Assembly: GCA_020696345.1 (NCBI GenBank)
Contig: JAEHCK010000012.1
Coordinates: 1-64,000, forward strand
Origin: Thermoplasmata archaeon
GTDB lineage: Archaea > Thermoplasmatota > Penumbrarchaeia > JAEHCK01
DNA length: 64,000 bases
Reading direction: 5' to 3'
A program made the position numbers and the translations under genes. The notes under the pieces were generated by a model, which made no database searches, was not told the origin of the DNA, and saw only the letters and a list, made by a program, of their open reading frames with translations. Below are positions 5,590 through 60,569 of the stretch, one piece after another. Numbering within the stretch: the stretch's first letter is position 1; every line of letters starts with the position of its first letter.

Positions 5590-8500
5590 TCAGAATAAAT
5601 AATTATTTCCTTCTTCTAAGTAAGTATATTCTATTTTTGGTTCGTCATACCATGGATCAAATGCACCATTTTTATTCAATCGATAACCTAGATGCCAGAG
5701 TTTCATAAAATTATATGATTCTTCAGAAGATATATAATCATTTGAATACCCACTTATTGATGGAAAATGTGAATAACCATTTAATGCATTTGTAGTGCTT
5801 TCATCAGCATCTAATATATCATTACTTTGCACAGTACTTTGAGTAAATCTATCAATGTATATAGCTTCAGTTAATCCCGAAACAAATTCAACACCGTTAT
5901 CTCCCCAATTTTCATAAAAATCTATTCCATTCGAAGGTTTTTCTCTTTCAATTTCATATAACTCATCATTATACTTTGATAATTCATACTGCCAAACTGT
6001 TTGACCTGAGGTTGGATTATATTCTTCGTAATCAATCTTTGGAGCATCACCATCATCGTATTGTTTGCCTTGTGCAATCCACCACCCAACATAATAAACC
6101 TGTGTTGTTGAACTTATTTCCTTATTACACAAATCAAAATCATATTCTTTTCCATTTGTTCTGGATTCCCCAGCCTTATCACTCGTGATAATTACCCGAT
6201 TTGTCTCATCTTTATAAGTCGTAGATGTAATTTTATCCCGCTTTAATTCATCTATCCAATCACCAGAAAAATCCGGCTGCAAAATAATTGTCATATCTTT
6301 GCATTCAATGGTATCCAAATAATTGTCCAACCCATATAGTTTTTTGATTGTTATAATAGAATTTATATCTGGCGTTAAGTCAATGGGTGTAATTGAATTG
6401 CTATTATCCGCATCAAAGAAATATTCAGTTGTTCCTCCAAACGATTGCGTTCCACCGTATCCCGTATAAAAGAAAAGCACCTTATCATATGAATCGGATT
6501 TCCTGGCAACCTCTTGAATAGCCCAAAAAATGTTTTTCAAACCCATTTTTTGCGTAACTTGTTTATCTCTCTCCAGATACGGATAATCACAAGTTGATTT
6601 TGGATAATCATCATGTATACCAACATAGAATATCTGATCCTGCAGATAGTACCCAGTATATCCCGGTTCCGGTTTTATATTATTCTCGTGTTCGGTGAGC
6701 ATCTTCGCCATTTCGCGAATATTAGCTTCGAACTGTTCCTGTTGGAACGGTTCATTCGGATTTGCCTTGATACCTTTGCTCCCCTCGATCAGTATCGCAA
6801 ACCGATTATCACCGTTACCGTTATGTTTCGGCCCTGCCCCGAACATGCCCCACTTGATAGCTTCGGGGTAAGATTCGTAATCATCGGATTCTTTCAATCT
6901 CTCAGCCCCTGCACCCATAATGATCTCGACCTTTTGATTACCATCGGTGTCGGCTATTGCGGACGATGCGATATATGTTGGATATTCCACGCCCGTTCCC
7001 AGTGCGTAATAGCTGTAGTCCTCATCCACGGCACCCGCGGTATCCAGGCAGTAGATGTGTCCATCCGCGGACATTGCGACCGTTTCGTAGCCGCCGTCGG
7101 GGAATGAATTGAGGTCAACCGCCGATGGTGATACGCTGAACGCACCCTTCGTGCCTTCGCCTACCGCGGGGAACTGCCAGTTCAGGGTGCCATCCGAGTT
7201 TAAGCAATATGTGACGCCGTTATCGGAACCGATCACGACCTCAAGCTCTTCTGTTGAAATATCGACATTAGCGATGGAAGGTGATGAGCGGATTGGTGAG
7301 TAGGTGTTGAATGTCCATTTTAGTTTACCTTCATAATCTATGCAATAAATCTTACCATCATCGCAACCAACTACTATTTCCATATAACCATCGCGGTCGA
7401 GATCGCCGATGGCGGGGGTGGATTTGATTGGAGAGCCGGTATCATATGGTTGTAGCTCTTCTTTTGAACCTATCCATATATGATCACCCTTATGATTTAA
7501 ACAATAAATTTTTCCATTCTCATTACATATTATTATCTCTAATAAATCATTATTGTTTAAATCACCGATTACTGGCGATGAATATGTGTCTGCATTATAT
7601 GGATCTCTATAAAATAGTTCGCCTATCCAAGTATCACCTATTACCCCCAATGCTGGACTTCTTAACCCAGCATGTAATATAATCTTATTTGTATCATAAA
7701 ATCCTTCCATACCAAAAGAATGTCTGACACTCGGTTTGGTATTAGGTCTTGCTTTTGTTAAAGTCCATATGTTATTGCTTTGATCATACACCCAATTATC
7801 ATATATCATTCCAAGGCTCCCTCCGTATCCGCCAAATAGAAATGCTTTATCATCATTCCATATAGATGCCATTTCTCCTGATCTTTTGGTTGGGATATAT
7901 ATTGGATTAAATGTTAGTTTGATCCATTTGTTAGTAGGGGTATTTGAATTATATTCCCAAGTATCGTCAAGATAATTAGTTGTAATTCCATTAAAATTAC
8001 GACCACCAAAAAGTACTACATTATCAGTTCCATAGATAGTTGCCATTGAATGACCTTCTCTAGCATTTGGTTTAATTGACATTTTTTTCTCAGTCCACTC
8101 ATCACTACTATAATCATATTCCCAAGTATCATCAAAATAATTCCAATCGATAGAGCATCCTCCAAAAAGCACAACTTTATCTGTTTCGTGAATAGAGGCC
8201 ATTGCATGCCAAATTCTTTTACTTGGTTTAGGAGGTGATGGATTCATTTTTGTCCAACTGTTAGCACTGAAATCATATACCCAAGTATCATCGAAAAAAT
8301 TAGTTGAATTTCTACCGCCGAATAGTACAACCTTATCCGTTCCCCAAATAGTTGCCATTGCATGACTTTCTCTAGCATTTGGTTTGCTCCCTGAAGGATT
8401 TTTATCAGTCCAAGTTTTGGTACTTAAATCGTACACCCAAGTATCATCAATTAATGGGGATTTTTTACCACCAAAAAGCAACACTTTATCTGTTCCATGA

Positions 8501-11500
8501 ATGGTTGCCATTCCAAAATCAGATCTCTTACCTGGTGTGTTTGTTGGGCTTGGTGTAGATGGAGTCGTCTCTTCCCAATATATAGTTGATTTTGGTATTA
8601 AGGGATCTTCTATCCAGAGTACCTTAAGCTTATAATCAAAACAATAAATTCTACCAATATAATTTACCATTACTATCTCAAGATATTTATTCTGAACAAT
8701 ATTAGCAATGGCTGGTGAAGAATAAAATGGAGATGCGATCGGTGTGGTTTGGGGAATATTAATATCAAATACAGATGTGTCATAACTCCATTTGGTATTA
8801 CCATTTACATCTAATATATAAACCCAACCTTCAACCGTACCCACAACAATTTCCAACTCCTTATCATTATCCACATCAGCAATTGCGGGTGAACATACAA
8901 TATTCTTTCCAAGAAGTGCCTTCTTTATTGGAATTGGGTTATTATCTTCATAAAAGTATAACCCATAATCTTCACCGCTCCTACCAATCACTCTTCTAGT
9001 CTCTGTTTTATAAGATGTACTTCCACTATCCCATTTACTATACTGCAATATCGCCGGCGCGGCCTCGAAATGATGAAACTGGTACTCTGGATGGAACAAC
9101 CCCTGGTCTTTCGATTTTTCTTTACCATCTTTCGTTTCATCGGCGTCGGTATCCGGGTCGTTGGGATCGGATATATCGGGTCCCAGTTGGACACTGATAT
9201 CCAAAAGTTCGATTGTTTCTTCTACATTTGCTGAGAACTTCAATGGTATGGAAATATATCCATTCTCATCGATCTCATATTCATGATTTGCGATATAATC
9301 GTTCAACTCTGCCGAGAAATCATATATCGGGTACATGACTTCGTAATTCCCTGGCGTGTAATCCACCGTGCTATCGTCACCCACATCAAGGGTTGGGAGA
9401 GCAGGAATATTGTTATTTATATAATTATAACAGATATCTCCATCCTCAAGTGTACCAGCAGAAAAATCATTCCATACGACATGTATCTTACCGGTCCCGT
9501 CCGCCGCCGCCTTGGGGAATCGTGAGTCTTTTCCAAGATCTTCACTCAGTTCCACCGCCGAGCCCCAGGTAACGCCATTATCCGTGCTCCTTCTATATTT
9601 GATCTGGTAATTCGAGACTCCCGGTGGTTCTTCATATATATCTTCACTCCAGAATACATATAATAACGAATTTTTAACATCCACCACAATAGAGGGGTCT
9701 ATCGAATCCACTCCAGGCGATGCGGATATAACGAATACATTATCCCATGTTCTTCCATTATCAGTGCTCCTTTTATAGTAGACTTCTGTAATTGTAAGGT
9801 CTGGATAATCAACCCAAACGGCATGAACATTTTTACCGTCAACCGCAATGCAGCCCGTACTATCTCCGCTGTCCGTGCCAAACGCGGATCTAACATTATT
9901 ACCATCGGTCAATTGCTCACGCTGAACAGCCGTATTTCCGTTATTATACAGCCTCATATAATCGACCTCACAATCTTGACCGTCCGGGTCGTCATCGTTG
10001 AACACGACATGTACATTACTGCTGTCCACACCAATGTCCGGTTTGTTCGGCGAGCCGCCGGCGGTATTGTCCGCCCTGATCGAGTCCACAATCCCCCAGC
10101 TGTCACCATTTGTACTACTTTTACTGTATACTATCTCATCGTCATCAGGTGAAGTATACCAAACCACGTGAACATTCTTACCGTCAACCGCGATGTTTGG
10201 TTCATACGAATCGTCTATATCCGATAACCTAGTATCATCCAACGGCCATTCATTGTCATCACCCTCTTTTTCATTTTTCGAATAATATATCTTTCTTTCA
10301 TTCAGATCATCAACGGTCGCGTAAACTACATGGATATTGTCATCGTACACATCTATTGAAGGATAACCCGCATCGTATTGAGGCGGATTTGAAAACTCAT
10401 GACTTAAAGTCCATGAAGAGCCGCCATCATTGCTTCCTATATATTGCACACTATCCCCAGTCAAACCAGTTTCATAATTTTGAAAAACTACATGTATTCT
10501 ATCTCCACCACTAGTCACCGCTATATCCGGATATTTGTTCTCCTGCCCCGTAATTCCGTCTTGAGCGCCAAAGCCGGTTTCCTCGCTCCTAACCTTAATG
10601 TTCATACTGGCCTTTGTGACATATCTTCTGACGAGCCCCTGGATAGGAATTTCCAGATTTGTCGTACCCTGCCCACCTTCCAGAACCACCACATTATCCG
10701 AATCATCAGATATTGTGGTGACTTCCATTGGTTTATCGTTGGAAATTCTAACAAACACCCCTTTGTCAACATAAATTCTCTCAGTAATTGAAACGTCTAG
10801 AGCACTTAAGTAAATAATATTATGAGTTAATGTGATAATAGAATCAAATTTATACCATCTATAATAATTATCATAGATTGTTTTGGTTACATCATAATCT
10901 TCTTCTTGAATGGTATATCTTATTTTTAATTCAGCAGGTTCACCATCTTTCAATCTGGCTTTAATATAATAAAGATATGTATTTTCAATAGATAAACCTT
11001 GGAATTCCACATTTATTACCTCTCCATCGCCTCCTGATGCACTATATGCTGCATCATCACCTTTTGGCTTCGGATCATTTGCTGTAGGATCCTCTACTGA
11101 TATGCCACCAGAACCTAAGTTATCCTCGGCCTCGAACCAATATACTCCATTTTGGACTTCTCCATCATCATTTAATACATCGAAATCAGTATCAAATAAT
11201 ATGGGACTTGAAGAATAATTAATTAATTCAAAATAATCCGAGATAGTATCGAAATCCGTATCGGAATGTTCTGAACTTGTACAAAATTGAAATTCTTCCA
11301 GATTTACCAAATTATCATTATCCTGGTCCAAATTGGCATCATTGGGATCGTTTGGGTTCAGACCGTGCTGTAGCTCATACCAATCAGGCATACCATCAAA
11401 ATCCGAATCAGGTGCAGACATCCTTGAATAATCATATTCGGTCAAGTTGATAATTGGTAAAGAGTTCGAATCAACTTCAAGATCATAGATAATGCTATTG

Positions 11501-13605
11501 ATTATTACCGATAAATCGATTCCAGGTGAACTATCAATGAATTTGATACTTATATCATTAGTTGATAATTCATTATTCGATATATTTATCGAAGAGCTGT
11601 TAAATACAATACCAAAATCATTTTGTGAGATCGAATTATTGGTGATCGTACTATTTTCCGAATTTTGTGCTGAATCGTCAATATATATGCCATAATAACA
11701 ATTTGAGATAGAAGTGTTAAAAATTGTCGGATTGCTCTGGTTAATATAAATACCGCTTCCGGAGAAATTATCTATTTCGGAATTTATTATTATTGAATCC
11801 GAATATAGTTGAATTCCGCTTTTTGGCTCATTTGAACTGCCATTTATATTAAAAACCGAACATTCACTCATGGTCATATTGCCTTCGACTTTGAATTCAT
11901 AAGGATAATTCGCATTATAACTCTTAATTTCGGTGGAATATAACGATAAATTACCCCCTGGTTTCACCCAGATCATGTAGGTATCGCTGGCCGTACTGTT
12001 CATGATCAAATAACTGTTTGACAATATCAATGCCTGGTTATTATCAATTGTCAGGTTATTATTTAGAATTAAATATTCCTCGCCCGAAAACGGGTTCGTA
12101 TTCCAGATATTCAATTCTGCACTATCGTTCATCCCATCCGAGTCGGTATCCATGTTTATCGGGTCGGTACCATTTTGAAATTCTTCCAGATTGGTCAAAC
12201 CATCGGAATCGTAATCAAGATTAGAATCGCTGCTATTAGAATTATTCAGACCATATTGATATTCAAAATAATCTGGCATCGAATCGGTGTCATTATCGGG
12301 GGCGGATATTTTTGACCAATTGTATTCGGTTAAATATATATCGGGAAAAGAATTTGAAGATACATTGATATCTGCATTATTGTTTACAAATTTACATGAG
12401 AAGATCGATGAATAACTTTCAATCAATTTTAATCCGATTTCATTGGATATGAATTTTGTATCGGAAATCTCCGGAGATGCATTGTGCAAAACCATACCGA
12501 TTTCGTTATTCAAAATAGTATTTTTCATGATCAGAGAATCCTCATAATTATTTGTTATATCCTCAATTTCGACTAATGCCGATATTGTAGTGTTATTTGC
12601 GTCTACCACTTGAACAACGCTTATCCCTTCCCATTTTGCGGTATATGATCCATTTTGGTCAATCGAGCCAAAAGTCGAATTGTCTACTGTCCAGTTCAAT
12701 GGTGCGGTACCATTTGTAACATTAAATTGCAGATCATCGTCAATGTTCAATACAGCATATGTTGGTGATATTTTCATAGATGTATATGATTCCGGAATCA
12801 CCTGTACCAACGCTTTCCCTATAGTCGTATTATTATCTGCGACCGTAATAATACTCCCACCAATGTTTTGTGAAGTAAAAAAGCCAGTACTATTGATGGT
12901 TCCAACAGTTGTATTTGATGAGTTCCAGGTATAAGGCGGGTCACCACCTGTAACATTGAATTGTACCGAACGATTGGTAAGAATATCGACTTTCGACGGT
13001 GATAACCCCAAAACAGGTACTGGCCCTGCAAAATATATGCCGTAATAACAGTTTGAAACGGTGGTATTATAAATTGTCGGTGTACTTTCGTTTATATATA
13101 TTCCCGTTCCCAAACTGCTATTGATTTTGGAGTCGATAATTACAGAATTAGAATATAATTGAATGCCACCCGTTGGTGTAGATTGAATACCATATAAATT
13201 ATCCAATGTACAATTTTCCATATACATGTCCCCTTCGACAATGAATTCATAGGAATAGTCTATATTATAGCTATTTATTTTTGTAGATAATAAATTCAAA
13301 GTACCACCAGGTTTCACCCATATGTAATATCTATTGCTTGAAGTGCTATTGACTACCAGTTGCACTTTCGATAATTCCAATGTGCCGCTGCTGTTTATTA
13401 TTAAATTTCCGTTCAAGATCAAAGTTTCATTTTCCCTGGTTATATGATCACCATATTCGATATACCAAACATTGGTTGTCTCACCATTTGTAGACGGAGC
13501 ACCATATTCTGCTTCGGCATAAAACAAAATAAAATTCCAAGTTATTGCGGTCATTAAAAATACAACAAAATACGCTCTTATTTTCTTATACTTCTCCAGA
13601 TACAT
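5590..13605 (-). CDS. Giant secreted protein: beta-helices, Ig-like, BNR, nested propellers, pseudo-caspase module
   Basis: 2671 residues. A signal/anchor helix lies at about 10-30. Then come beta-helix repeats with Big_2-like domains (about 40-410) and a thrombospondin-3/EF-hand-like Asp-rich segment (about 436-500). A second beta-helix (about 500-730) and a second Asp-rich segment (about 735-820) follow. Residues about 822-980 resemble a CBM6/35-type domain (WFEAED). Sialidase-like BNR repeats span about 1020-1390. FG-GAP/PQQ-like propeller blades (from about 1565, SPAIADVDND) are interrupted by a kelch propeller (about 1680-1990) and resume to about 2225. A caspase-fold module (about 2260-2671) ends the protein. 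Its His-Gly position reads FFYTGYGG and its Cys position reads LQPDFSG, so it is probably not a protease. AAGGAGG 7 nt upstream supports the start. No C-terminal anchor is seen. Function unknown; a surface or secreted binding role is inferred. Confidence 0.8.
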   Translation of the reverse strand: MYLEKYKKIRAYFVVFLMTAITWNFILFYAEAEYGAPSTNGETTNVWYIEYGDHITRENETLILNGNLIINSSGTLELSKVQLVVNSTSSNRYYIWVKPGGTLNLLSTKINSYNIDYSYEFIVEGDMYMENCTLDNLYGIQSTPTGGIQLYSNSVIIDSKINSSLGTGIYINESTPTIYNTTVSNCYYGIYFAGPVPVLGLSPSKVDILTNRSVQFNVTGGDPPYTWNSSNTTVGTINSTGFFTSQNIGGSIITVADNNTTIGKALVQVIPESYTSMKISPTYAVLNIDDDLQFNVTNGTAPLNWTVDNSTFGSIDQNGSYTAKWEGISVVQVVDANNTTISALVEIEDITNNYEDSLIMKNTILNNEIGMVLHNASPEISDTKFISNEIGLKLIESYSSIFSCKFVNNNADINVSSNSFPDIYLTEYNWSKISAPDNDTDSMPDYFEYQYGLNNSNSSDSNLDYDSDGLTNLEEFQNGTDPINMDTDSDGMNDSAELNIWNTNPFSGEEYLILNNNLTIDNNQALILSNSYLIMNSTASDTYMIWVKPGGNLSLYSTEIKSYNANYPYEFKVEGNMTMSECSVFNINGSSNEPKSGIQLYSDSIIINSEIDNFSGSGIYINQSNPTIFNTSISNCYYGIYIDDSAQNSENSTITNNSISQNDFGIVFNSSSINISNNELSTNDISIKFIDSSPGIDLSVIINSIIYDLEVDSNSLPIINLTEYDYSRMSAPDSDFDGMPDWYELQHGLNPNDPNDANLDQDNDNLVNLEEFQFCTSSEHSDTDFDTISDYFELINYSSSPILFDTDFDVLNDDGEVQNGVYWFEAEDNLGSGGISVEDPTANDPKPKGDDAAYSASGGDGEVINVEFQGLSIENTYLYYIKARLKDGEPAELKIRYTIQEEDYDVTKTIYDNYYRWYKFDSIITLTHNIIYLSALDVSITERIYVDKGVFVRISNDKPMEVTTISDDSDNVVVLEGGQGTTNLEIPIQGLVRRYVTKASMNIKVRSEETGFGAQDGITGQENKYPDIAVTSGGDRIHVVFQNYETGLTGDSVQYIGSNDGGSSWTLSHEFSNPPQYDAGYPSIDVYDDNIHVVYATVDDLNERKIYYSKNEKEGDDNEWPLDDTRLSDIDDSYEPNIAVDGKNVHVVWYTSPDDDEIVYSKSSTNGDSWGIVDSIRADNTAGGSPNKPDIGVDSSNVHVVFNDDDPDGQDCEVDYMRLYNNGNTAVQREQLTDGNNVRSAFGTDSGDSTGCIAVDGKNVHAVWVDYPDLTITEVYYKRSTDNGRTWDNVFVISASPGVDSIDPSIVVDVKNSLLYVFWSEDIYEEPPGVSNYQIKYRRSTDNGVTWGSAVELSEDLGKDSRFPKAAADGTGKIHVVWNDFSAGTLEDGDICYNYINNNIPALPTLDVGDDSTVDYTPGNYEVMYPIYDFSAELNDYIANHEYEIDENGYISIPLKFSANVEETIELLDISVQLGPDISDPNDPDTDADETKDGKEKSKDQGLFHPEYQFHHFEAAPAILQYSKWDSGSTSYKTETRRVIGRSGEDYGLYFYEDNNPIPIKKALLGKNIVCSPAIADVDNDKELEIVVGTVEGWVYILDVNGNTKWSYDTSVFDINIPQTTPIASPFYSSPAIANIVQNKYLEIVMVNYIGRIYCFDYKLKVLWIEDPLIPKSTIYWEETTPSTPSPTNTPGKRSDFGMATIHGTDKVLLFGGKKSPLIDDTWVYDLSTKTWTDKNPSGSKPNARESHAMATIWGTDKVVLFGGRNSTNFFDDTWVYDFSANSWTKMNPSPPKPSKRIWHAMASIHETDKVVLFGGCSIDWNYFDDTWEYDYSSDEWTEKKMSIKPNAREGHSMATIYGTDNVVLFGGRNFNGITTNYLDDTWEYNSNTPTNKWIKLTFNPIYIPTKRSGEMASIWNDDKAFLFGGYGGSLGMIYDNWVYDQSNNIWTLTKARPNTKPSVRHSFGMEGFYDTNKIILHAGLRSPALGVIGDTWIGELFYRDPYNADTYSSPVIGDLNNNDLLEIIICNENGKIYCLNHKGDHIWIGSKEELQPYDTGSPIKSTPAIGDLDRDGYMEIVVGCDDGKIYCIDYEGKLKWTFNTYSPIRSSPSIANVDISTEELEVVIGSDNGVTYCLNSDGTLNWQFPAVGEGTKGAFSVSPSAVDLNSFPDGGYETVAMSADGHIYCLDTAGAVDEDYSYYALGTGVEYPTYIASSAIADTDGNQKVEIIMGAGAERLKESDDYESYPEAIKWGMFGAGPKHNGNGDNRFAILIEGSKGIKANPNEPFQQEQFEANIREMAKMLTEHENNIKPEPGYTGYYLQDQIFYVGIHDDYPKSTCDYPYLERDKQVTQKMGLKNIFWAIQEVARKSDSYDKVLFFYTGYGGTQSFGGTTEYFFDADNSNSITPIDLTPDINSIITIKKLYGLDNYLDTIECKDMTIILQPDFSGDWIDELKRDKITSTTYKDETNRVIITSDKAGESRTNGKEYDFDLCNKEISSTTQVYYVGWWIAQGKQYDDGDAPKIDYEEYNPTSGQTVWQYELSKYNDELYEIEREKPSNGIDFYENWGDNGVEFVSGLTEAIYIDRFTQSTVQSNDILDADESTTNALNGYSHFPSISGYSNDYISSEESYNFMKLWHLGYRLNKNGAFDPWYDEPKIEYTYLEEGNNYLF

Positions 13606-14050: not shown

Positions 14051-14174
14051 ACTAACGCAAATGGTAAGGAATGGGTTAATTGGTGCTTGTAGTGGAATGG
14101 ATTACTTGATGGGGAACCGATCACATTCCCCATTCCCATGTACAACATAAAATATTTACATTCCCCATCCTAAA

Positions 14175-14245
14175 CTATTGACTCCATGGACTCTCGACTC
14201 TTTAGACCCTCGACTAATAAGCATTAGTTTATCCATTTTCCACCC
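14175..14245. repeat. Dispersed intergenic repeat of the GACTC/CGACT type
   Basis: The GACTC-TCGAC-TTTAGAC words at 14180-14214, then TTTATCCATTTTCCACCCCTC, recur at 37047-37120 in the same order. Shorter, degenerate versions lie at 32478-32507, 47238-47269 and 56614-56630. All are intergenic. Confidence 0.6.
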
Positions 14246-14352
14246 CTCTCCAAATGTTTTTCAACAATAATTCTTAGCAATGGTCCCCCTTCCCCAAACG
14301 ATTTTATTTATTAAATAATCGTAGTGGTCTGCCGAAGGCTTGGCCGAAGGCC
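14240..14352 (-). repeat. About 110-bp dispersed repeat abutting the 3' end of secY
   Basis: This stretch matches 53720-53822 at roughly 85-90% by eye, in the same orientation. In the sense of the secY transcript it starts at the stop codon with GGCCTTCGGCC-type short hairpins. It continues with ACGATT...AATCGT inverted words, then a GGGGAAGGGGGACCA run. Its place after the last gene of the ribosomal operon suggests a 3'-end or termination element, but mobile-repeat origin is equally possible. Confidence 0.65.
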
Positions 14353-16106
14353 TATTCTCCGCCAAAGAATCCACGCAGTACCGGATGCATCTCCATCATT
14401 TGCTCTTTGCCGATCTCCTCGTATAATCTAATGATTATACCTACGGTTAATAACACGCCAGTTCCGCTTGAATTACCAACCGTTCCGATCATATCGGCTC
14501 CTGCAGCCAATCCGCCGACAAATGCTCCGCTGATCACGGTGACCATGGGAATATACCTCTCCAGTACTTTTCGCAATACACGCGGATCGCGCCTGAAACC
14601 AGGGATCTGCATACCGCTGCTCTCGATCTGTTTTGCCACGTCCTCCGGGCCCATATTGGTTGTCTCGATCCAGAATTTTGCAAATAATACGGAGCCAATT
14701 ACCATCACACTCATATAAATTACCACATGCAAGATGACTTGATATAACTCATGGCCGGTGACATAAGGCCCGTATCTGTCCCAATTTAACGCTGGCAATA
14801 GCCATTCGTGGACGCCACTGATCTGGGATAGATACCATGCACCGCCGTAAAGTGGTTTTGTAACATTTTCACCGGTTTCCGTGGTATATGCACCGATCCA
14901 CCATTGGTGACCTAATAATGGTATTTTCTGCAGCGTCGGATGGCTCCAGAGTAATAAAGAGAACATATTCACATTTGCCAATAATGCGGACATTAAGATA
15001 ACCGGAATATTTGATGCGTAAATAAGCCTGATCGGGTACCTGCCGCGCGCACCGCGTACCCTACCATGTGCCAGCGGCAGCTCGATGCGGGCGGATTCCA
15101 CATATGCCACGATCAAGAATATCAGGATCGTACCGATCAATGCGATGATCGGATTGGGCGGCCCTAAAAATATCTGCTCGAGCCCGCCGCCGTTCGCAAT
15201 ATCGCTCAGCGACATATCAGATAACAAGTCAATGGTTTTGGGTATGGTACCGCTAGGTGTACCCTTGGGTAGTCGATACTCTTCGTAGTTTTTTAACGGG
15301 ATCCAGTTCACGGTACCCGTGAATATTGCCTCGGAAACGCCCGCAGCTATGAATAGACTGATACCACTACCGATGCCCCATTTGGATACCAGCTCGTCCA
15401 TAAGGAACACCAGGTAGCTGCCTGCAATGAGTTGTACCACAATGATGAACCGTGCAAACCCGAGCCCCTCGGTACCTCCACCGAAGGCACTGATCAAAGG
15501 CGCACCGGGCATCAAGTATCCGAATACCTGCGGTACTGCTTCGATGACGATCATGGCGATTACAACAACTTTCTGGGTTCCTTGGTATACTGCCTTGTCC
15601 TCACTCTTTGTCAGGTCAAGAGAGATGATCTTGGCGCCAGTGAACAACTGCATGATAATAGACCCGGTGACGATCGGCCCGATACCCAGATGCATTAATG
15701 AGCCCGATGCACCGGCCATGATCGCCCGGAATTGTGAGAATATATCAAGACTGCCTTCCACATCAAGGCCGAAGATAAAAACATTTGTCAATATGAAATA
15801 GAATACCAAAATGCCCAGGGTCCACATCATTTTGGTGCGAAAATGAACATGTCCTTCTGCGCGTTTGATGGCCGGAAAGCGTTCGATAATGGGTTTTAGG
15901 CCGTATAATTTACTATGTTCGCCTTTATAGGAGATCACCAGATATACTAGCCAGAGTGTAACGCCCATTAGCGGTGGGAATAGAACAGCGCCCAACATAT
16001 CATTATCTTTCCAATAATAGGAGAAATAGATAACTAAAAGTAGGATGTAACCTACTATAATGGGTACTGCCCAGCCCTTTTTTCGTTCTACGGCTTCGCC
16101 TGCCAT
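14352..16106 (-). CDS. secY: Protein translocase subunit SecY (Sec61 alpha)
   Basis: The central pore of the Sec translocon in the cytoplasmic membrane. At 584 residues it is longer than archaeal SecY such as the roughly 436-residue Methanocaldococcus protein. The canonical start motif LKPIIERFPAIKR appears only at about residue 70. Before it lie two additional hydrophobic helices (about 13-31 and 37-60). The plug-region motif GSGISLFIAAGV, the loop ESARIELPLAHGRVRGARGRYPIRLIYASNIPVI (in parts) and a C-terminal RLYEEIGKEQ are present. An enlarged loop between TM7 and TM8 holds about 70 extra residues. It is the last gene of the ribosomal cluster. The adenylate kinase gene often found after secY in euryarchaea is not here. 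Confidence 0.95.
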   Translation of the reverse strand: MAGEAVERKKGWAVPIIVGYILLLVIYFSYYWKDNDMLGAVLFPPLMGVTLWLVYLVISYKGEHSKLYGLKPIIERFPAIKRAEGHVHFRTKMMWTLGILVFYFILTNVFIFGLDVEGSLDIFSQFRAIMAGASGSLMHLGIGPIVTGSIIMQLFTGAKIISLDLTKSEDKAVYQGTQKVVVIAMIVIEAVPQVFGYLMPGAPLISAFGGGTEGLGFARFIIVVQLIAGSYLVFLMDELVSKWGIGSGISLFIAAGVSEAIFTGTVNWIPLKNYEEYRLPKGTPSGTIPKTIDLLSDMSLSDIANGGGLEQIFLGPPNPIIALIGTILIFLIVAYVESARIELPLAHGRVRGARGRYPIRLIYASNIPVILMSALLANVNMFSLLLWSHPTLQKIPLLGHQWWIGAYTTETGENVTKPLYGGAWYLSQISGVHEWLLPALNWDRYGPYVTGHELYQVILHVVIYMSVMVIGSVLFAKFWIETTNMGPEDVAKQIESSGMQIPGFRRDPRVLRKVLERYIPMVTVISGAFVGGLAAGADMIGTVGNSSGTGVLLTVGIIIRLYEEIGKEQMMEMHPVLRGFFGGE

Positions 16107-30882: not shown

Positions 30883-31257
30883 TTTGTGTGATCAGAGTGA
30901 GATAGCTCCAAATCAATTGATTGGCGAACAAAGGCAAATTTTAATTATTTGTTCTGGTAGTATATTGCACAACAGTATCAATCAATACTGTACCAGTATT
31001 GGGTAATTCACGAGTATTTCTGTTCTAGTCAGTGCAAGCGACCGTTACGCTTATACCGGTTGTAAAAACTTGGACCAACAATGCGATCCATCTCCAATCC
31101 GGTCCTGGGTCGTAGAAATTTATTCTTCTTTACCCAATGCGTATGGTCAACTTCTTCTGAATGTGGGTTTCACTTGATATAAATTCGTGTATATATACTT
31201 TAGGGCAAGCAGCTTATAGCAAAGTAGAATTATTATAGGAAAGTAGCCGTGATGGGT
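30883..31257. other. Intergenic region before the tandem arrays
   Basis: About 375 bases with no supportable gene. It contains an AT-rich stretch and a TATA-like TGTATATATAC near 31182-31192, with no gene obviously served by it. Confidence 0.4.
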
Positions 31258-31365
31258 TGTTGATTGACAGATGCCGGGATTAATTGTTGATTGGCAGATG
31301 CCGGGATTAATTGTTGATTGATAGATGCCGGGATTGATTGTTGATTGACAGATGCCTTGATCGAT
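31258..31365. repeat. Four tandem 27-bp repeats
   Basis: Units lie at 31258-31284, 31285-31311, 31312-31338 and 31339-31365. The first three differ by one to three bases; the fourth diverges at its end. The unit contains AGATGCCGGGATTAAT. There are no spacers, so it is a minisatellite rather than a CRISPR array. Confidence 0.9.
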
Positions 31366-31419
31366 TATCGATTAATTGAAACCTAGTTTTAAAGACAAAT
31401 CCTGGAATCAACTCAGCAC

Positions 31420-31608
31420 CAACCCAGCACGGTATCTGCTCAGCACCAACCCCGCCAGGTATCTGTTCAGCATCAACCCAACACGGCATCTATTCAACAT
31501 CAACCCATCCAGGTATCTGTTCAGCATAAATTCATCACGGTATCTGTTCAACATCAACTCAGCCCGGTATCTGTTCAACATCAACTCAACCTGGCTTCTG
31601 TTCAGCAT
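31420..31608. repeat. Seven tandem 27-bp repeats, inverted relative to the neighbouring array
   Basis: Units start at 31420, 31447, 31474, 31501, 31528, 31555 and 31582, with a partial copy after. Each contains a GGTATCTGTTCAGCAT-like core. The reverse complement of the first array matches this unit at about 18 of 27 positions, so the arrays look like diverged, oppositely oriented relatives. The array ends 25 bases before the stop codon of the nucleotidyltransferase gene. Confidence 0.85.
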
Positions 31609-31633
31609 CAATCAAGCCCACCTACAATACAGA

Positions 31634-32383
31634 TCATTCTTTCCTATTTTTCAACCCCGCCAAAAATGTGCTTGCTTTTAATAGCGTTTCAAATTTACCA
31701 GCATCTGACCAGAAACCTTGTATCTTGAACGCTTTTACCGTGTTGCGTTTTACATATATATTGTTCACATCCGTGATCTCAAGTTCATTCCGATCAGAAT
31801 ATCCGATAGTTTCCACTACTTCCCTGATCAAATTGAAAACATTGTTTCTGTAAAAATAAAGCCCGGTAACAGCCTGATCACTTTTAGGTGTTTTAGGTTT
31901 TTCTTCTATATTAATAACATTATTATTGTCATCCATTTCAGCGATACCAAACCGCTCTGGGTCCGGGACCTCTTTTAAAAATAGAAAACATTCGGATGAC
32001 CTATCCTCGGAAAATTGTTTTACATGTTCTCCGAACGTGTCTTCAAATATATTATCGCCCAGTATAACCGCCATATCATCCTCGCCAATAAAATCCTCTG
32101 CCAAACTAAGCGCCTCGGCGATCCCGCCAGCGCCATCCTGGTAAACATACGTGAGTTTTGCATTGAATATCTTACCAGAACCCAATAGCTTAATAAAATC
32201 ACCCACACTTTCGCCGCCGAGCACGATCAATATGTTTGTGATCCCCGAATTGGTCAGGGTCTTAATGACCCTGAATATCATGGGCTCATCATAGATCGGC
32301 AACAAATGCTTATTCGTCACCTCGGTTAATGGACGTAATCTGACACCGTAACCGCCAGCAAGAACTACACCTTTCAAGGTCAT
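31634..32383 (-). CDS. Sugar-1-phosphate nucleotidyltransferase (RmlA-like)
   Basis: 249 residues, the short RmlA/RfbA-like form. The nucleotide-binding signature VLAGGYGVRLRPLTEVTNKHLLPIYDEPM is nearly complete. GDNIFED carries the metal-binding Asp, and EKPKTPKSD and VTGLYFY are family motifs. It probably transfers dTTP (or UTP) to glucose-1-phosphate, feeding surface glycan or protein glycosylation, which fits the sequon-rich surface proteins. No other dTDP-sugar genes are adjacent. Its 3' end abuts the 27-bp arrays. Confidence 0.85.
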   Translation of the reverse strand: MTLKGVVLAGGYGVRLRPLTEVTNKHLLPIYDEPMIFRVIKTLTNSGITNILIVLGGESVGDFIKLLGSGKIFNAKLTYVYQDGAGGIAEALSLAEDFIGEDDMAVILGDNIFEDTFGEHVKQFSEDRSSECFLFLKEVPDPERFGIAEMDDNNNVINIEEKPKTPKSDQAVTGLYFYRNNVFNLIREVVETIGYSDRNELEITDVNNIYVKRNTVKAFKIQGFWSDAGKFETLLKASTFLAGLKNRKE

Positions 32384-32883
32384 GGTCGTGTTGCTCCGTT
32401 TGTGTTGAATAAATTATTGATATTGTGAAACTGATTTTAATATATAGTATTTTTCTTGTATATTTAGTGATCAATAGTCGAGAGTCTAAAGAGTCAGGAG
32501 TCGACTCAGTAGAATTGATGGTTAGGGAATTGGAAATTTGAAATTGTAAAAGTTAAACTAGGCCAATTTACTTGCTTAAATTGTCTCGCTCTGAAAAACC
32601 CTTCAGCTTTTTCAAAGTTAAAAAAGTAAAAAGTAAGAGTTAATTGTTAGATGGTCAATCGGTCCATCGGTCTATCAGTCTAATGGTCTACCGGTCCGTT
32701 AGTCTACCGGCCAACCAGGTGACCAGGTGACGGGTTGATTAGCTGGCCCTCCACAATTCATTAAATTTTTCAACTAACAAAATAGTACTAGGTCCTTGCA
32801 ACTATAGAAAATCCCCTAAACTCCTATAACTCCCTAAACCCCCATAACTCCCTAAACTAATACTAAAAAAATACAAAATCAGA
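32384..32883. other. Repeat-rich intergenic region
   Basis: 500 bases with no gene. It holds a GACTC-type dispersed repeat (32478-32507), a run of degenerate GGTC-TACC-GGTC words (about 32652-32735), a 27-bp sequence found identically at 60570-60596 (32755-32781), and CCCTAAACTCC microrepeats (about 32812-32866). Confidence 0.6.
32755..32781. repeat. 27-bp sequence repeated exactly at 60570-60596
   Basis: The 27 bases are identical to 60570-60596, and the flanking bases are also similar. Both copies are intergenic and in the same orientation. Confidence 0.85.
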
Positions 32884-34183: not shown

Positions 34184-34352
34184 GGAGAGTCTATAAATCT
34201 TGATTAATATTTAAGAGCTTGGGTGTTGTTAATGTGTTAATCGATGTGAAGTTGAAAATATCACTTAATTGATAGGATGTTCTATTTTTCGATTAATTAT
34301 CAAGATGTTTGATTTATTATTGTTAATTCATTTGTGCATCCTGTTATATAAG

Positions 34353-34436
34353 CGACATTTAGAACATCCCGACATCTCTTCGACATTTAGAACATCCCGA
34401 CATCTCAGCGACAATTAGAACATCCTGACATCCCAG
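34353..34436. repeat. Three tandem 28-bp repeats upstream of the moxR-like gene
   Basis: Units lie at 34353-34380, 34381-34408 and 34409-34436, with a partial fourth. Each carries CGACATTTAGAACATCCCGA, and AACATCC also occurs inverted (GGATGTT) at about 34267. The array ends about 20 bases before the probable TATA box of the next gene, so it could bind a regulator. Confidence 0.85.
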
Positions 34437-34454
34437 CGACATATACAACCTCCA

Positions 34455-34462
34455 ATTATATA
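34455..34462 (+). promoter_or_regulatory. Probable TATA box of the moxR-like gene
   Basis: ATTATATA lies 40-47 bases upstream of ATG 34502 and just after the 28-bp repeat array. Confidence 0.45.
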
Positions 34463-34501
34463 TTCTACATAATCCGAAACGTTTATGTAAAGTATTCAAA
34501 T

Positions 34502-35401: not shown

Positions 35402-35482
35402 TTAATGATCTATATTAGGGGTCTGGGGTCAGGAGTTCGGGGGTCGGGGTGCTGAGAATCCACACACCCGTAACTCCCATAA

Positions 35483-35570
35483 CCCCCAAACCCCCCAAAC
35501 TCCCCAAACTCCCTAAACTTCCCAAACTTCCCAAACTCCCCAAACTCACACACTCACAAACTCACACACT
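35483..35570. repeat. Short CCAAACT microrepeats between moxR and vwa genes
   Basis: About nine copies of an 8- to 9-bp unit (CCCCAAACT, CCCTAAACT, TCCCAAACT, CACAAACT). The same words recur near 32812-32866 and, in other orientation, near 53451-53480. The DNA is C-rich on one strand. Confidence 0.7.
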
Positions 35571-36815: not shown

Positions 36816-37238
36816 TTCTAAATACCCATTTTGCCTAATGTTTCCATGTAGAAATTAAATGAACAAAGCATTTTTTTATAAGGTATCACCCCTATAAGGT
36901 AGAGAATATCAGAAAAGTGCACCTGTATATGGGGGTGCTTTTAAATAGTTCAAATAAATAAAATTATTTATTCTATTTTTTTAGATTCATCATTGCTACT
37001 ACTCCTCGATAACCCATCACCGCCACTGCCCATCGATAACTCATTTGACTCTTTAGACTCCCGACTCTTTAGACTCTCGACTTATCTTCACCAGCTTATC
37101 CATTTTACACCCCTCACACCTAAGCAAGCAATAAAAAAGTAGAGAAGAGCTATAATTTATTCTCCATCACATCTCTCAGGTTAGTTTTTAATACATTGAA
37201 GTAATTTCTCATCTGTATTAAAAACCAGGAGAAGATAA
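36816..37238. other. Intergenic region with hairpin and dispersed repeat
   Basis: Near 36914-36941, AAAAGTGCACC and GGTGCTTTT can form a stem and may end the moxR-vwa transcript. At 37047-37120 lies a copy of the GACTC-type repeat seen at 14180-14245. AGGAGA about 6 nt before ATG 37239 is the ribosome binding site of pheS. No gene is visible. Confidence 0.5.
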
Positions 37239-49028: not shown

Positions 49029-49320
49029 AGAAAGGCCTTTTTTGCCTTCGGCACAACACGATAGTACTCTTCGAGTACAATCGAGACCTCAAAATTCGGT
49101 TATTAATCAATAAATTGAATTTTTACGTATCCCTCGGGGAAATTGTGAAAAGATAATGGTTCACCTTCTTGATGGTTAGGGATCACAATTTGGGGGTCAC
49201 AACTCAGAATTTTTATTACTTTGGGCTATTTGAAATTGAAAATTGAAGAATGAATACTGAAAAATGAAAAGTAAAAAGTTATGTACTCAAAAGTGTATTT
49301 AATGCTGGTAGGCAGTTTTA
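49029..49320. other. Intergenic, no gene seen
   Basis: 292 bases with no supportable gene. It holds AAATTGAAAATTGAAG filler and a TGTATTTAATG TATA-like word about 30 bases before the next start codon. Confidence 0.4.
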
Positions 49321-52219: not shown

Positions 52220-53452
52220 ATGGTTCTTTCCGAGACCATGGCTAAGGTAAATGAGTATGATGCGGTGATCGTTGGCGGTGGAATTGCAGGCAGCACCACC
52301 GGTAAATTTATCGCTGAGCACGACCACAAAGTATTGATCGTTGAAGAGCATCGCGAGGTGGGGAAACCTCTTCAATGTGCCGGGCTGGTCACGCCGCGGA
52401 TATTTGACTTCATGCCAGAGAACGGCTGTGTTTTGAACAGAGTTCGCGGTGCTAAAGTTTATTCGCCCAGCGGTAAAGAGCTCGTGATCGATGCAAAGAA
52501 AACCAAAGCGGTTGTAATAGATAGGGTCGGCTTCGATCGATCCTGCATGGCCATGGCCGTACGCGCCGGCTGTGAGCTGAGTCTGGGTGCAAAGGCACTG
52601 GCGGCCAAATATGACGGCAATACCGTTTCCGTTAAGATCATGAAGGGAAATAAAATATTTTCAATGAACACTAAATTATTGATCGGTGCCGATGGTGTTC
52701 AGTCTCGAGTGGGGCGCTGGTTCAACTTAAAGAGACCACCATTATTAATATCCGGGTTCGGCGCCGAGCTTTCGGGTGTGAATATAGATCCACGGTTCGT
52801 GGAGATATATCTGGGTAACGATGTTGCACCAAACTTTTTCAGCTGGGCAATACCGAAATCTCCAAATACCGTCGATGGTGTGGTACCTGCGCGGGTGGGC
52901 CTGGCATGTGACAGTTCAACACATTGTGCATTTCAATATTATCATCAATTATTCTCACATCCCATCCTAGGGCCAAAACTGATTAGGTCTAAACCTATTC
53001 AATATATTGCAGGTGCCATACCTCTTGGTCCCGTACCAAAAAGCTATACCAATAATGTAATGCTCGTGGGCGATGCTGCTGGCCAGGTCAAACCTACCTC
53101 GGGGGGCGGCGTATATACTTCAATTTTATGTGCAAAACATTGCGCGAAAGTGGCAGATCATGCACTACAAATTAAAGATCATTCTGCAAAATGTCTAAAG
53201 GAATATCATAAGGCCTGGATGAACGACATCGGCGTGGAATTAAAACACGGTCTACGGTTGCACAAGGTATACATGCATCTGAAAGACAACCAACTCGAGG
53301 ACGGCTTCAACCTTTTAAGTGAAAAAAGTATTTTAAGTTTGATCTCGACACATGGCGATATCGACTTCCCGTCAAAGCTCACAACAGTTCTGTTTAAAAA
53401 GGTGCCTGCACTGTTGAAGTTTGCCAGGCCATATCTCAGGTCGTTCTTTTGA
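52220..53452 (+). CDS. Geranylgeranyl reductase-family flavoprotein
   Basis: About 404-410 residues. The start is ATG 52220 or, more likely, ATG 52238 (MAKVNEYDAV). The FAD motif is AVIVGGGIAGSTTGKF with EEHREVGKPLQCAGLV, and the second FAD motif is VMLVGDAAGQVKPTSGGGVY. This family saturates the isoprenoid chains of archaeal membrane lipids (digeranylgeranylglycerophospholipid reductase). The two-helix C-terminus fits too. Its 3' flank carries several copies of the AATCGTTTGGGG repeat. Confidence 0.9.
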   Translation: MVLSETMAKVNEYDAVIVGGGIAGSTTGKFIAEHDHKVLIVEEHREVGKPLQCAGLVTPRIFDFMPENGCVLNRVRGAKVYSPSGKELVIDAKKTKAVVIDRVGFDRSCMAMAVRAGCELSLGAKALAAKYDGNTVSVKIMKGNKIFSMNTKLLIGADGVQSRVGRWFNLKRPPLLISGFGAELSGVNIDPRFVEIYLGNDVAPNFFSWAIPKSPNTVDGVVPARVGLACDSSTHCAFQYYHQLFSHPILGPKLIRSKPIQYIAGAIPLGPVPKSYTNNVMLVGDAAGQVKPTSGGGVYTSILCAKHCAKVADHALQIKDHSAKCLKEYHKAWMNDIGVELKHGLRLHKVYMHLKDNQLEDGFNLLSEKSILSLISTHGDIDFPSKLTTVLFKKVPALLKFARPYLRSFF

Positions 53453-53531
53453 GTGTGTGAGTTTAAGAGTGTGTGAGTGGAAGAGTTGGGGCATGTAAAT
53501 AGACCGTTTTGCTTTTATATCGATGTAAATC

Positions 53532-53673
53532 ACTGGTGGAGGGGGGACCACTTCAAGTAATTATCGCTTGGGATCGTTTGGAGACCACTTCAATGATTTA
53601 TTGTTTACAATCGTTGGGGGAGGGGTGACCACTTCAATTTTTTATTGAATTAAATCGTTTGGTGAGGGGGGAT
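53532..53673 (+). repeat. Clustered copies of the AATCGTTTGGGG repeat after the reductase gene
   Basis: GGAGGGGGGACCACTTCAA, ATCGTTTGGAGACCACTTCAA, AATCGTTGGGGGAGGGGTGACC and AATCGTTTGGTGAGGGGGG lie at about 53537, 53570, 53611 and 53656. They are the same word as in the 14240 and 53720 elements, here on the plus strand, so the region between two convergent genes is an inverted pair of this family. Confidence 0.6.
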
Positions 53674-53719
53674 AGATGTTTTTCGATTTTAGAGAGAGAA
53701 AGCAAATAATTTTTTTTGT

Positions 53720-53822
53720 TCCACCCTCTCCAAATGTTTTCCAACAATAATTCATAATAATGGTCCCCCTTCCCCAAACGATTCTGTTTATTATATAATC
53801 GTAGTGGTCGGCCGAAGGCCAT
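53720..53822 (-). repeat. About 103-bp dispersed repeat, second copy
   Basis: Matches 14240-14352 with few differences (CTCTCCAAATGTTTT, CAACAATAATTC, TGGTCCCCCTTCCCC, AAACGATT, ATAATCGTAGTGGTC, GCCGAAGGCC). It lies 24 bases after the stop codon of the minus-strand gene at 53846-54775, a position like that of the first copy after secY. Confidence 0.75.
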
Positions 53823-53845: not shown

Positions 53846-54775
53846 TCACTTCCGCCGGTACCTGAAATCATGAACCTTCTTCGCCAGATCATCCAATTCC
53901 TTTTTTGTTTTGGGGAATTTACCTTTCTCGTCCATAAAGTAAAAGACCACCGCAAGTACCGCAAAGATTATCGCAGGGATGACAAAAATATAAAGTCCCC
54001 AGCTCGGTAGAGGTTTAAGAACTCGAATGGATGTATCCGGGATAAGCCCGTCAACATCGAGCACGCCCAGATTCAGCCTGCCTGTGATGTTTGGGTCACC
54101 TTCAGCGTCATCGGGTATATCTTTTTGGGCATTTTCCCATTGGCTATCTAAAAAATACCCGCGCGATCTCAGGTCAAAATATTCGTCATTGAACGAAAAG
54201 TTCAGGTGCATGCGTATGAAATACCGACCCTGCGGTGTATTTGAATAAGATTTAATAGAAAGCTTAACCTGGACGGTTTCATTCTCTATTCTCGGCCAGT
54301 AAAACTCCGCGGTCCATTGGTCGGCAAGATCGCGAAACCCGCCTGAGGTATCACTGGAACCACCCGTAAACTTTGGCGAATGCGAGATCTTTTGCACATC
54401 TTCACTCTCTTCCAAAGTTGAATATCTATAGATATTTACAATAAGTGTCGTATTGGTCATGGTCATGGTCATGGTCGTATTGGTCGTGGAATTATCATCA
54501 TTGGATTCGTGTCCGTTCGTGACAGTGAAATTGTATCTGTTCGTGATCTTAAACCTTAGTTTACCACTACTACCGGGAGTTATTGTAGGAGTGTGAAAGT
54601 CATTAAAGTCGGGTACTTGCCCGGGATTGGCGATATCTTTTCTCAAAGGCGACGAATAATTCCCATCACCAACTATTGTGTTGGTTAATAATACCATGAT
54701 CAGTAAAACGACGAAGAACGGTCGAATAAATAGTAAAGAAAATGATCTTGACATTAATACCATGTTACCTACCAC
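53846..54775 (-). CDS. Secreted membrane-anchored protein, unknown
   Basis: 309 residues. An N-terminal signal helix (about 15-35), a beta-rich extracellular part with many N-x-S/T sites and an MTMTMTNTT run (about 102-110), then one transmembrane helix (about 260-285) and a basic cytoplasmic tail. No catalytic motif. The extracellular part could be an Ig-like fold. I do not recognise the family. Alternative starts are Met5 and Met8. Confidence 0.68.
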   Translation of the reverse strand: MVGNMVLMSRSFSLLFIRPFFVVLLIMVLLTNTIVGDGNYSSPLRKDIANPGQVPDFNDFHTPTITPGSSGKLRFKITNRYNFTVTNGHESNDDNSTTNTTMTMTMTNTTLIVNIYRYSTLEESEDVQKISHSPKFTGGSSDTSGGFRDLADQWTAEFYWPRIENETVQVKLSIKSYSNTPQGRYFIRMHLNFSFNDEYFDLRSRGYFLDSQWENAQKDIPDDAEGDPNITGRLNLGVLDVDGLIPDTSIRVLKPLPSWGLYIFVIPAIIFAVLAVVFYFMDEKGKFPKTKKELDDLAKKVHDFRYRRK

Positions 54776-60415: not shown

Positions 60416-60569
60416 TAGGGATGTGGGATTTGGAATGTGGGATGTGGGTTGCAGTAATTATGCAAACCCTCTCACCTCAAACGATTGATTTTAGAAAAAG
60501 ATCGTAGTGTACTCTTACCTCACACCTAATTCATTATCCACCATTCACAATTTTCCATTTATAATCCAT

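What the first reader, a model, noticed from the sequence alone, without database searches (positions are those of the whole stretch)
14240..14352. 110-bp repeat placed at the 3' ends of genes
Near-identical elements begin right at the secY stop codon (14240-14352) and 24 bases after the stop of the gene at 53846 (53720-53822), both in transcript sense. Related AATCGTTTGGGG words lie after the convergent reductase gene (53532-53673), again in transcript sense. This looks like a 3'-end element with GCCTTCGGC and ACGATT...AATCGT stems, or a repeat that targets such ends. A further copy at 60477-60513 is not at a 3' end.
Basis: partly seen in the sequence, partly recalled or inferred. Interest (0 to 1): 0.55.

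Follow-up and report, generated by a model that had tools for sequence, protein, structure and literature searches.

The report
Relics of a stop-codon-seeking mobile element
The repeat beside the archaeal secY gene looks like a stripped-down copy of a small mobile element whose full versions carry a mysterious gene known mostly from inserts in bacterial ribosomal RNA, and relatives of that element sit at gene stop codons in many bacteria.

Summary
The repeat is real and genome-wide. Its unit is a fixed 36-nt module (183 found in the stretches read, 0 in reversed sequence; 187 pattern hits genome-wide, control 1). In 19 of 55 clusters a "+" array faces a "-" array. [quoted passage not shown]). 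The window copy at 53502-53809 keeps that gene's leader and last codons, so it is an internal-deletion (MITE-like) derivative. The secY copy (14240-14352) is a solitary arm. The genome has 21 IVP matches; the family is rare in its phylum. In bacteria, IVP genes are flanked by inverted short-repeat arms (40/77 vs 12/260 other genes), the upstream arm starting within 16 nt of a co-directional stop codon at 23 of 35 sites. At Rhizobium nuoC-nuoD, three kinds of IVP element occupy one junction in 13 of 30 loci; 17 are empty. The "3'-end element" reading is half right: copies favour gene 3' ends and stop codons, but solitary arrays in tandem gaps follow no transcript-sense rule (7 vs 10). How it moves is inferred, not shown.

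The parts
14342..14352 (-). GGCCTTCGGCC palindromic module abutting the secY stop codon; a second, GCCTTCGGC, at 14331-14339
14294..14329 (-). 36-nt unit, type 1 (GACCACTACGAT...AATCGTTTGG), A arm
14286..14293 (-). 8-nt G-rich link between units
14250..14285 (-). 36-nt unit, type 2 (GACCATT...CATTTGG), A arm; this secY copy is a solitary arm
14352..16106 (-). secY, host gene whose stop codon abuts the arm
53502..53662 (+). B arm: four 36-nt units (53502-53537, 53546-53581, 53583-53618, 53627-53662)
53670..53687 (+). remnant of the leader just upstream of the IVP start codon (ggatagatgtttttcgat)
   Evidence: aligned to the two IVP-bearing elements
53688..53709 (+). remnant of the last IVP codons and stop (ends AAATAA)
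53730..53809 (-). A arm: units 53774-53809 and 53730-53765
53810..53820 (-). GGCCTTCGGCC module
60477..60512 (-). single decayed unit (5.8 bits)

Best explanation
The repeats are the arms, and gene-less derivatives, of a small mobile element. Its complete form is: arm A, then the IVP/S23 four-helix-bundle gene, then arm B in inverted orientation. Shown: arrays of a fixed 36-nt unit; facing arms; an intact IVP gene inside two copies; internal deletion of that gene in the window copy at 53502-53809; solitary arms such as the secY copy; preference for gene 3' ends, often directly at the stop codon; the same architecture (inverted short-repeat arms around IVP genes, upstream arm at a stop codon) in many bacteria; presence, absence and occupation by different IVP elements at one orthologous junction in Rhizobium. 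Inferred: the IVP protein (a pentamer in its solved homologue; related to the retroelement helper Avd) binds the arms of its own family, as RNA or as single-stranded DNA, and takes part in copying the element to the 3' edge of genes, where an insert does least harm. Gene-less copies would move in trans. Whether the step goes through RNA or DNA is open.
For: 183 units, 0 in reversed control; 187 genome-wide pattern hits, control 1. 19 of 55 clusters have both orientations, always + then -. IVP ORFs of 134 aa inside two elements; 21 PF05635 matches in this genome, 5 of 194 phylum genomes over the cut-off, own included. Window copy keeps IVP leader and C-terminal codons. Own-genome IVP genes have inverted flanks: 12 of 18 testable (of 21) score 32 or more, against 3 of 237 other genes, p 3e-9. 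Named, nearly all bacterial loci: 40/77 vs 12/260, p 1.8e-18. Upstream arm within 16 nt of a co-directional stop at 23 of 35 deduplicated sites, chance about 0.12, p 1.6e-13. Rhizobium nuoC-nuoD: 13 of 30 loci filled, by three arm/IVP types; a type-a and a type-b genome share 95.6% nuoD DNA but 60% IVP protein. Homology to Xcc0516 (2gsc, E 3e-24), family TIGR02436, weak Avd match. RNA of the whole window element folds with z -5.5, another element with z -3.9.
Against: No transposition seen, no target-site duplication recognised, no empty site for the archaeal copies (the repeat is in none of 56 relatives, the nearest of the same class). 37 of 77 bacterial and 6 of 18 testable own IVP loci fall below the arm threshold. 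Only 2 of 19 two-armed elements are known to hold an intact IVP gene. The nuoD tree is weakly resolved (15 of 27 inner branches under 80), so its 10 state changes are rough; transfer of a filled junction between species is possible. Filled Rhizobium junctions also lack part of the spacer of empty ones, so it is not a clean insertion. Stop-codon proximity in bacteria could partly reflect tolerance for inserts in short operon gaps, or arms that grew to fill the gap.
Confidence: 0.8

Rival explanations
1. A 3'-end RNA element: terminator, processing site or mRNA stabiliser placed after genes.
For: Bias to convergent gaps and stop codons; covariation of columns 5-32 and 6-31; GGCCTTCGGCC palindromes.
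Against: Solitary arrays in tandem gaps 7 sense, 10 antisense; single units fold like shuffles, secY arm z -0.6; no Rfam match; an intact gene and its remnants inside.
Confidence: 0.08
2. MITE-like or REP-like repeat mobilised by a Y1 (IS200/RAYT) or other transposase; the IVP gene is a passenger.
For: 15 Y1_Tnp matches in the genome; inverted arms; modular palindromes.
Against: Units lie in 1 of 13 Y1 regions, about 850 bp away; 0 of 9 testable Y1 genes have inverted arms scoring 32 or more; the four tested by profile are IS200 family; the IVP-arm link recurs with unrelated arms in many bacteria. Other transposase families were not searched.
Confidence: 0.07
3. Local tandem-repeat expansion in spacers, without movement; IVP genes just tolerate such DNA.
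For: Many bacterial arms are short tandem repeats.
Against: Fixed 36-nt units at 55 clusters; gene remnants; different elements at one junction; other genes in the same loci rarely have such flanks.
Confidence: 0.05

Closest known systems
23S rRNA intervening sequences (IVS) with S23/IVP ORF (Salmonella, Leptospira, Coxiella)
   Same: S23/IVP ORF (PF05635), complementary ends forming a stem, sporadic distribution; the Coxiella IVS even has tandem heptamers before the ORF (PMC4990558, abstract and passages read)
   Different: Here in intergenic DNA at stop codons rather than in rRNA helices, in an archaeon, with arrays of 36-nt units and many gene-less copies
Diversity-generating retroelement Avd protein
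   Same: Same superfamily; weak Avd model match, E 5e-4, 20 bits against cut-off 80; resemblance stated in PMC10053308 (passages read)
   Different: No DGR-type RT found; the one RT is a group II intron RT
REP/BIME repeats with RAYT (recalled)
   Same: Short palindromic modules, facing orientation, often after genes
   Different: No association with Y1 genes here
IVP genes reported near CRISPR-cas genes
   Same: PMC3936711 (passages) lists 18 IVP genes in cas loci, one between cmr3 and cmr2; PMC10910872 (figure-legend passage) names IVP among the domains shown
   Different: Our reading is insertion into operon gaps rather than a cas function (inference)

Membership tests
23S rRNA IVS / S23 element | encodes S23/IVP protein | tested here: met
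   two full-length copies; not the window copies, which are deleted
23S rRNA IVS / S23 element | complementary ends | tested here: met
   facing arms, fold z -5.5 and -3.9
23S rRNA IVS / S23 element | inserted in an rRNA helix | tested here: not met
   55 of 55 clusters lie between called protein genes or at contig ends and none overlaps a called gene by more than 20 nt; rRNA genes were not searched for in all stretches
23S rRNA IVS / S23 element | RNase III excision without ligation | not testable with these tools
   needs RNA
MITE (internally deleted derivative) | gene-less copy sharing ends and interior with a coding copy | tested here: met
MITE (internally deleted derivative) | target-site duplication | tested here: inconclusive
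   no empty site for archaeal copies; none evident by eye at Rhizobium junctions
REP/RAYT | Y1 transposase gene flanked by the repeats | tested here: not met
Diversity-generating retroelement | Avd with dedicated RT and TR/VR repeats | tested here: not met
   the only RT is of group II type; TR/VR not searched
3'-end RNA element | transcript-sense orientation | tested here: not met
   7 vs 10 solitary arrays in tandem gaps

The most novel reading that the evidence does not exclude
IVP/S23 elements are a widespread class of mobile element, mostly overlooked outside rRNA, in which a four-helix-bundle protein with no known transposase or polymerase activity, together with inverted tandem-repeat arms, places copies at stop codons. 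The rRNA IVSs would be only the visible tip, and part of the unexplained short-repeat spacers of prokaryotes would be their gene-less relics.
Probability: 0.5. Interest if true: 0.85.

Novelty: new variant of a known kind. Interest (0 to 1): 0.72.

Why it matters
The S23/IVP protein has been known from rRNA inserts since 1993; recent papers still call it functionally uncharacterised (PMC11270868, passages) and the element's function and origin unclear (PMC4990558, passages). A genome with 21 IVP matches and about 190 arm units, plus Rhizobium species with filled and empty sites, turns "are these elements mobile, and does the protein act?" into a bench question. It also offers a source for intergenic short-repeat arrays and a plainer reason why IVP genes turn up inside cas operons (inference).

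Tried and rejected
Transcript-sense 3' element: rejected on orientation and folding. REP/RAYT: rejected. Retroelement with its own RT: the only RT is a group II intron RT. Rfam: nothing in the window. Relatives as empty sites for the archaeal repeat: none of 56 carries it and none is nearer than class. Hairpin at the empty Rhizobium junction as target: hairpins are visible, but z is modest (mean -0.67, 7 of 17 below -1), so it stays a lead. Literature: nine searches turned up no paper that, in the listings and passages I saw, links IVP genes outside rRNA to inverted repeat arms or stop codons; the library lacks most subscription papers and bioRxiv, so absence is weak.

Limits: clusters were chosen from hits, which favour the A arm; one search shows further copies that were not read, and its list was cut. 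Gene calls in the archaeal stretches come from my own hexamer script. The named set is the best 80 of 282 loci; 3 of 80 lacked flanks. The threshold of 32 was set. In one search, 4 of 39 rows were dropped by me as orthologous sites (L152, L162, L163, L173). Rhizobium states were assigned by eye; 30 loci came from 31 genomes; one IVP (L202) was not recovered by my expression and is left out of the protein comparison.

Full report
WHAT IS THERE. The window lies in a 4.97-Mb archaeal assembly (archaeal proteasome subunit and SecY; size). The genome holds many more: 64 matches to a junction word, control 0. I took 44 stretches around the hits. A weight matrix finds 183 units of exactly 36 nt in them plus the window, and 0 in the reversed sequences. 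A stricter whole-genome pattern gives 187 hits, control 1. Units read GACC-RY-T ... C-RY-TTGG; columns 5-32 and 6-31 stay complementary in 98-99% of 162 distinct units while changing among AC/GT, GT/AC and AT/AT, the two strongest couplings of all column pairs. Yet one unit alone folds no better than its shuffles, so a simple RNA hairpin is not supported. Units are joined by 1 nt or by 8 G-rich nt.

ARCHITECTURE. The 183 units form 55 clusters. In 19, "+" units are followed by "-" units, never the reverse, so two arms face each other; the other 36 are solitary arrays. One arm (A) often begins with GGCCTTCGGCC modules and a type-1 unit, the other (B) with GACCGTT units. The window element 53502-53809 is such a two-armed element, between a flavoprotein gene and the convergent gene at 53846. 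The secY copy is a solitary A arm.

THE GENE INSIDE. Two elements (L037 and L043; contigs C44 and C68) enclose a 134-codon ORF. It belongs to PF05635/TIGR02436, the 23S rRNA intervening-sequence or S23 four-helix-bundle family, and resembles Xcc0516 (2gsc, E 3e-24), whose assembly from five four-helix bundles I saw only as a reference title in PMC10053308 and PMC3936711. In alignment, the window copy runs with the coding elements through the B arm and the 18-nt leader before the start codon, then jumps to the last codons and the stop and runs on into the A arm. This is what an internal deletion leaves.

SCALE. The genome has 21 PF05635 matches. Of 194 genomes of the phylum, 5 including this one exceed the family cut-off. 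Other IVP genes of this genome lie between other repeat arrays, often inverted: 12 of 18 testable score 32 or more against 3 of 237 other genes (3 of 21 were too near a contig end). Several other repeat arrays of the window match those flanks.

BEYOND THIS GENOME. From a scan of named genomes, the best 80 of 282 IVP relatives were kept, nearly all bacterial. Comparing 400 bp upstream with the reverse complement of 400 bp downstream, 40 of 77 IVP genes score 32 or more, against 12 of 260 other genes in the same loci. The arms are mostly short tandem repeats. The upstream neighbour is co-directional in 66 of 76 (in other gaps of the same loci the left gene is "+" in 161 of 232, so this alone is a modest excess). 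Of 35 deduplicated loci with arms, 23 have the upstream arm within 16 nt of a co-directional stop codon; a random intergenic point would do so in about 12%.

A FILLED AND EMPTY SITE. In Rhizobium the IVP element lies between nuoC and nuoD (names from my reading of the sequence, not from a call), beginning at the nuoC stop. Of 30 loci of that group, 13 are filled by three kinds that differ in arms and in IVP sequence (a 3, b 4, c 6), and 17 are empty. Within each kind the two arms match each other (by eye). Genomes L200 (a) and L203 (b) share 95.6% of nuoD DNA but only 60% of IVP protein, while L203 and L214 (both b) share 89% and 92%. So the junction was filled more than once, or exchanged. 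The nuoD tree needs 10 state changes, but 15 of its 27 inner branches are poorly supported. Filled junctions lack part of the spacer of empty ones; the rRNA IVS is likewise described as replacing a tetraloop (PMC4990558, passages). That parallel is a lead only.

GENE 3' ENDS. In the archaeon, 41 of 55 clusters have both neighbours: 14 convergent, 24 tandem, 3 divergent, against 20, 81 and 38 other gaps of 100 bp or more (p 0.011 and 0.006). 45 arrays have a gene 3' end behind them, 25 a 5' end and 4 none; 15 of the 45 and 0 of the 25 begin within 20 nt of the gene. But solitary arrays in tandem gaps point with the genes 7 times and against them 10 times (counted). Insertion preference or tolerance explains this; a sense-strand RNA role does not.

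MECHANISM. Shown: anatomy, gene, deletion derivative, amplification, stop-codon placement, occupation of one site by different elements. Inferred: the IVP protein recognises its arms and helps copy the element. Whole elements can fold as RNA (z -5.5 and -3.9), the solitary secY arm does not. No Y1 or RT partner fits.

PRIOR ART. PMC4990558 (abstract and passages): Coxiella IVS called a selfish element, S23 ORF, inverted repeats, tandem heptamers before the ORF, mobility hypotheses of 1990 and 1993. PMC11270868, PMC10053308, PMC3936711, PMC10910872, PMC5524665: passages only. None of these passages describes arms around IVP genes outside rRNA. I therefore call it a new variant of a known kind.

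Noticed in passing
window 31228-31640 and 34337-34480: 27- and 28-bp tandem arrays that match flanks of IVP genes on contigs C158/C21 and C26: further IVP-type arm families.
   Followed up: partly
window 14174-14218, 32459-32515, 37043-37115: GACTC-type short repeats; parts of them match the flank of an IVP gene on C257.
   Followed up: partly
window 35453-35570, 49056-49128, 53451-53488: Other intergenic repeats that match flanks of IVP genes or fragments on C74, C158, C129 and C264.
   Followed up: no
L189 (G000:C220) 307-1630: Single group II intron with RT/maturase.
   Followed up: yes
L043 4706-4742 and 3090-3211: CRISPR-DR7 match and 5S rRNA near one IVP-bearing element.
   Followed up: no
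window 5590-13605: 2671-aa protein with kelch and FG-GAP-like domains and internal repeats spaced about 156 bp.
   Followed up: no
L199-L227, nuoC-nuoD junction: Empty Rhizobium junctions often carry a hairpin after the nuoC stop that filled junctions lack.
   Followed up: partly
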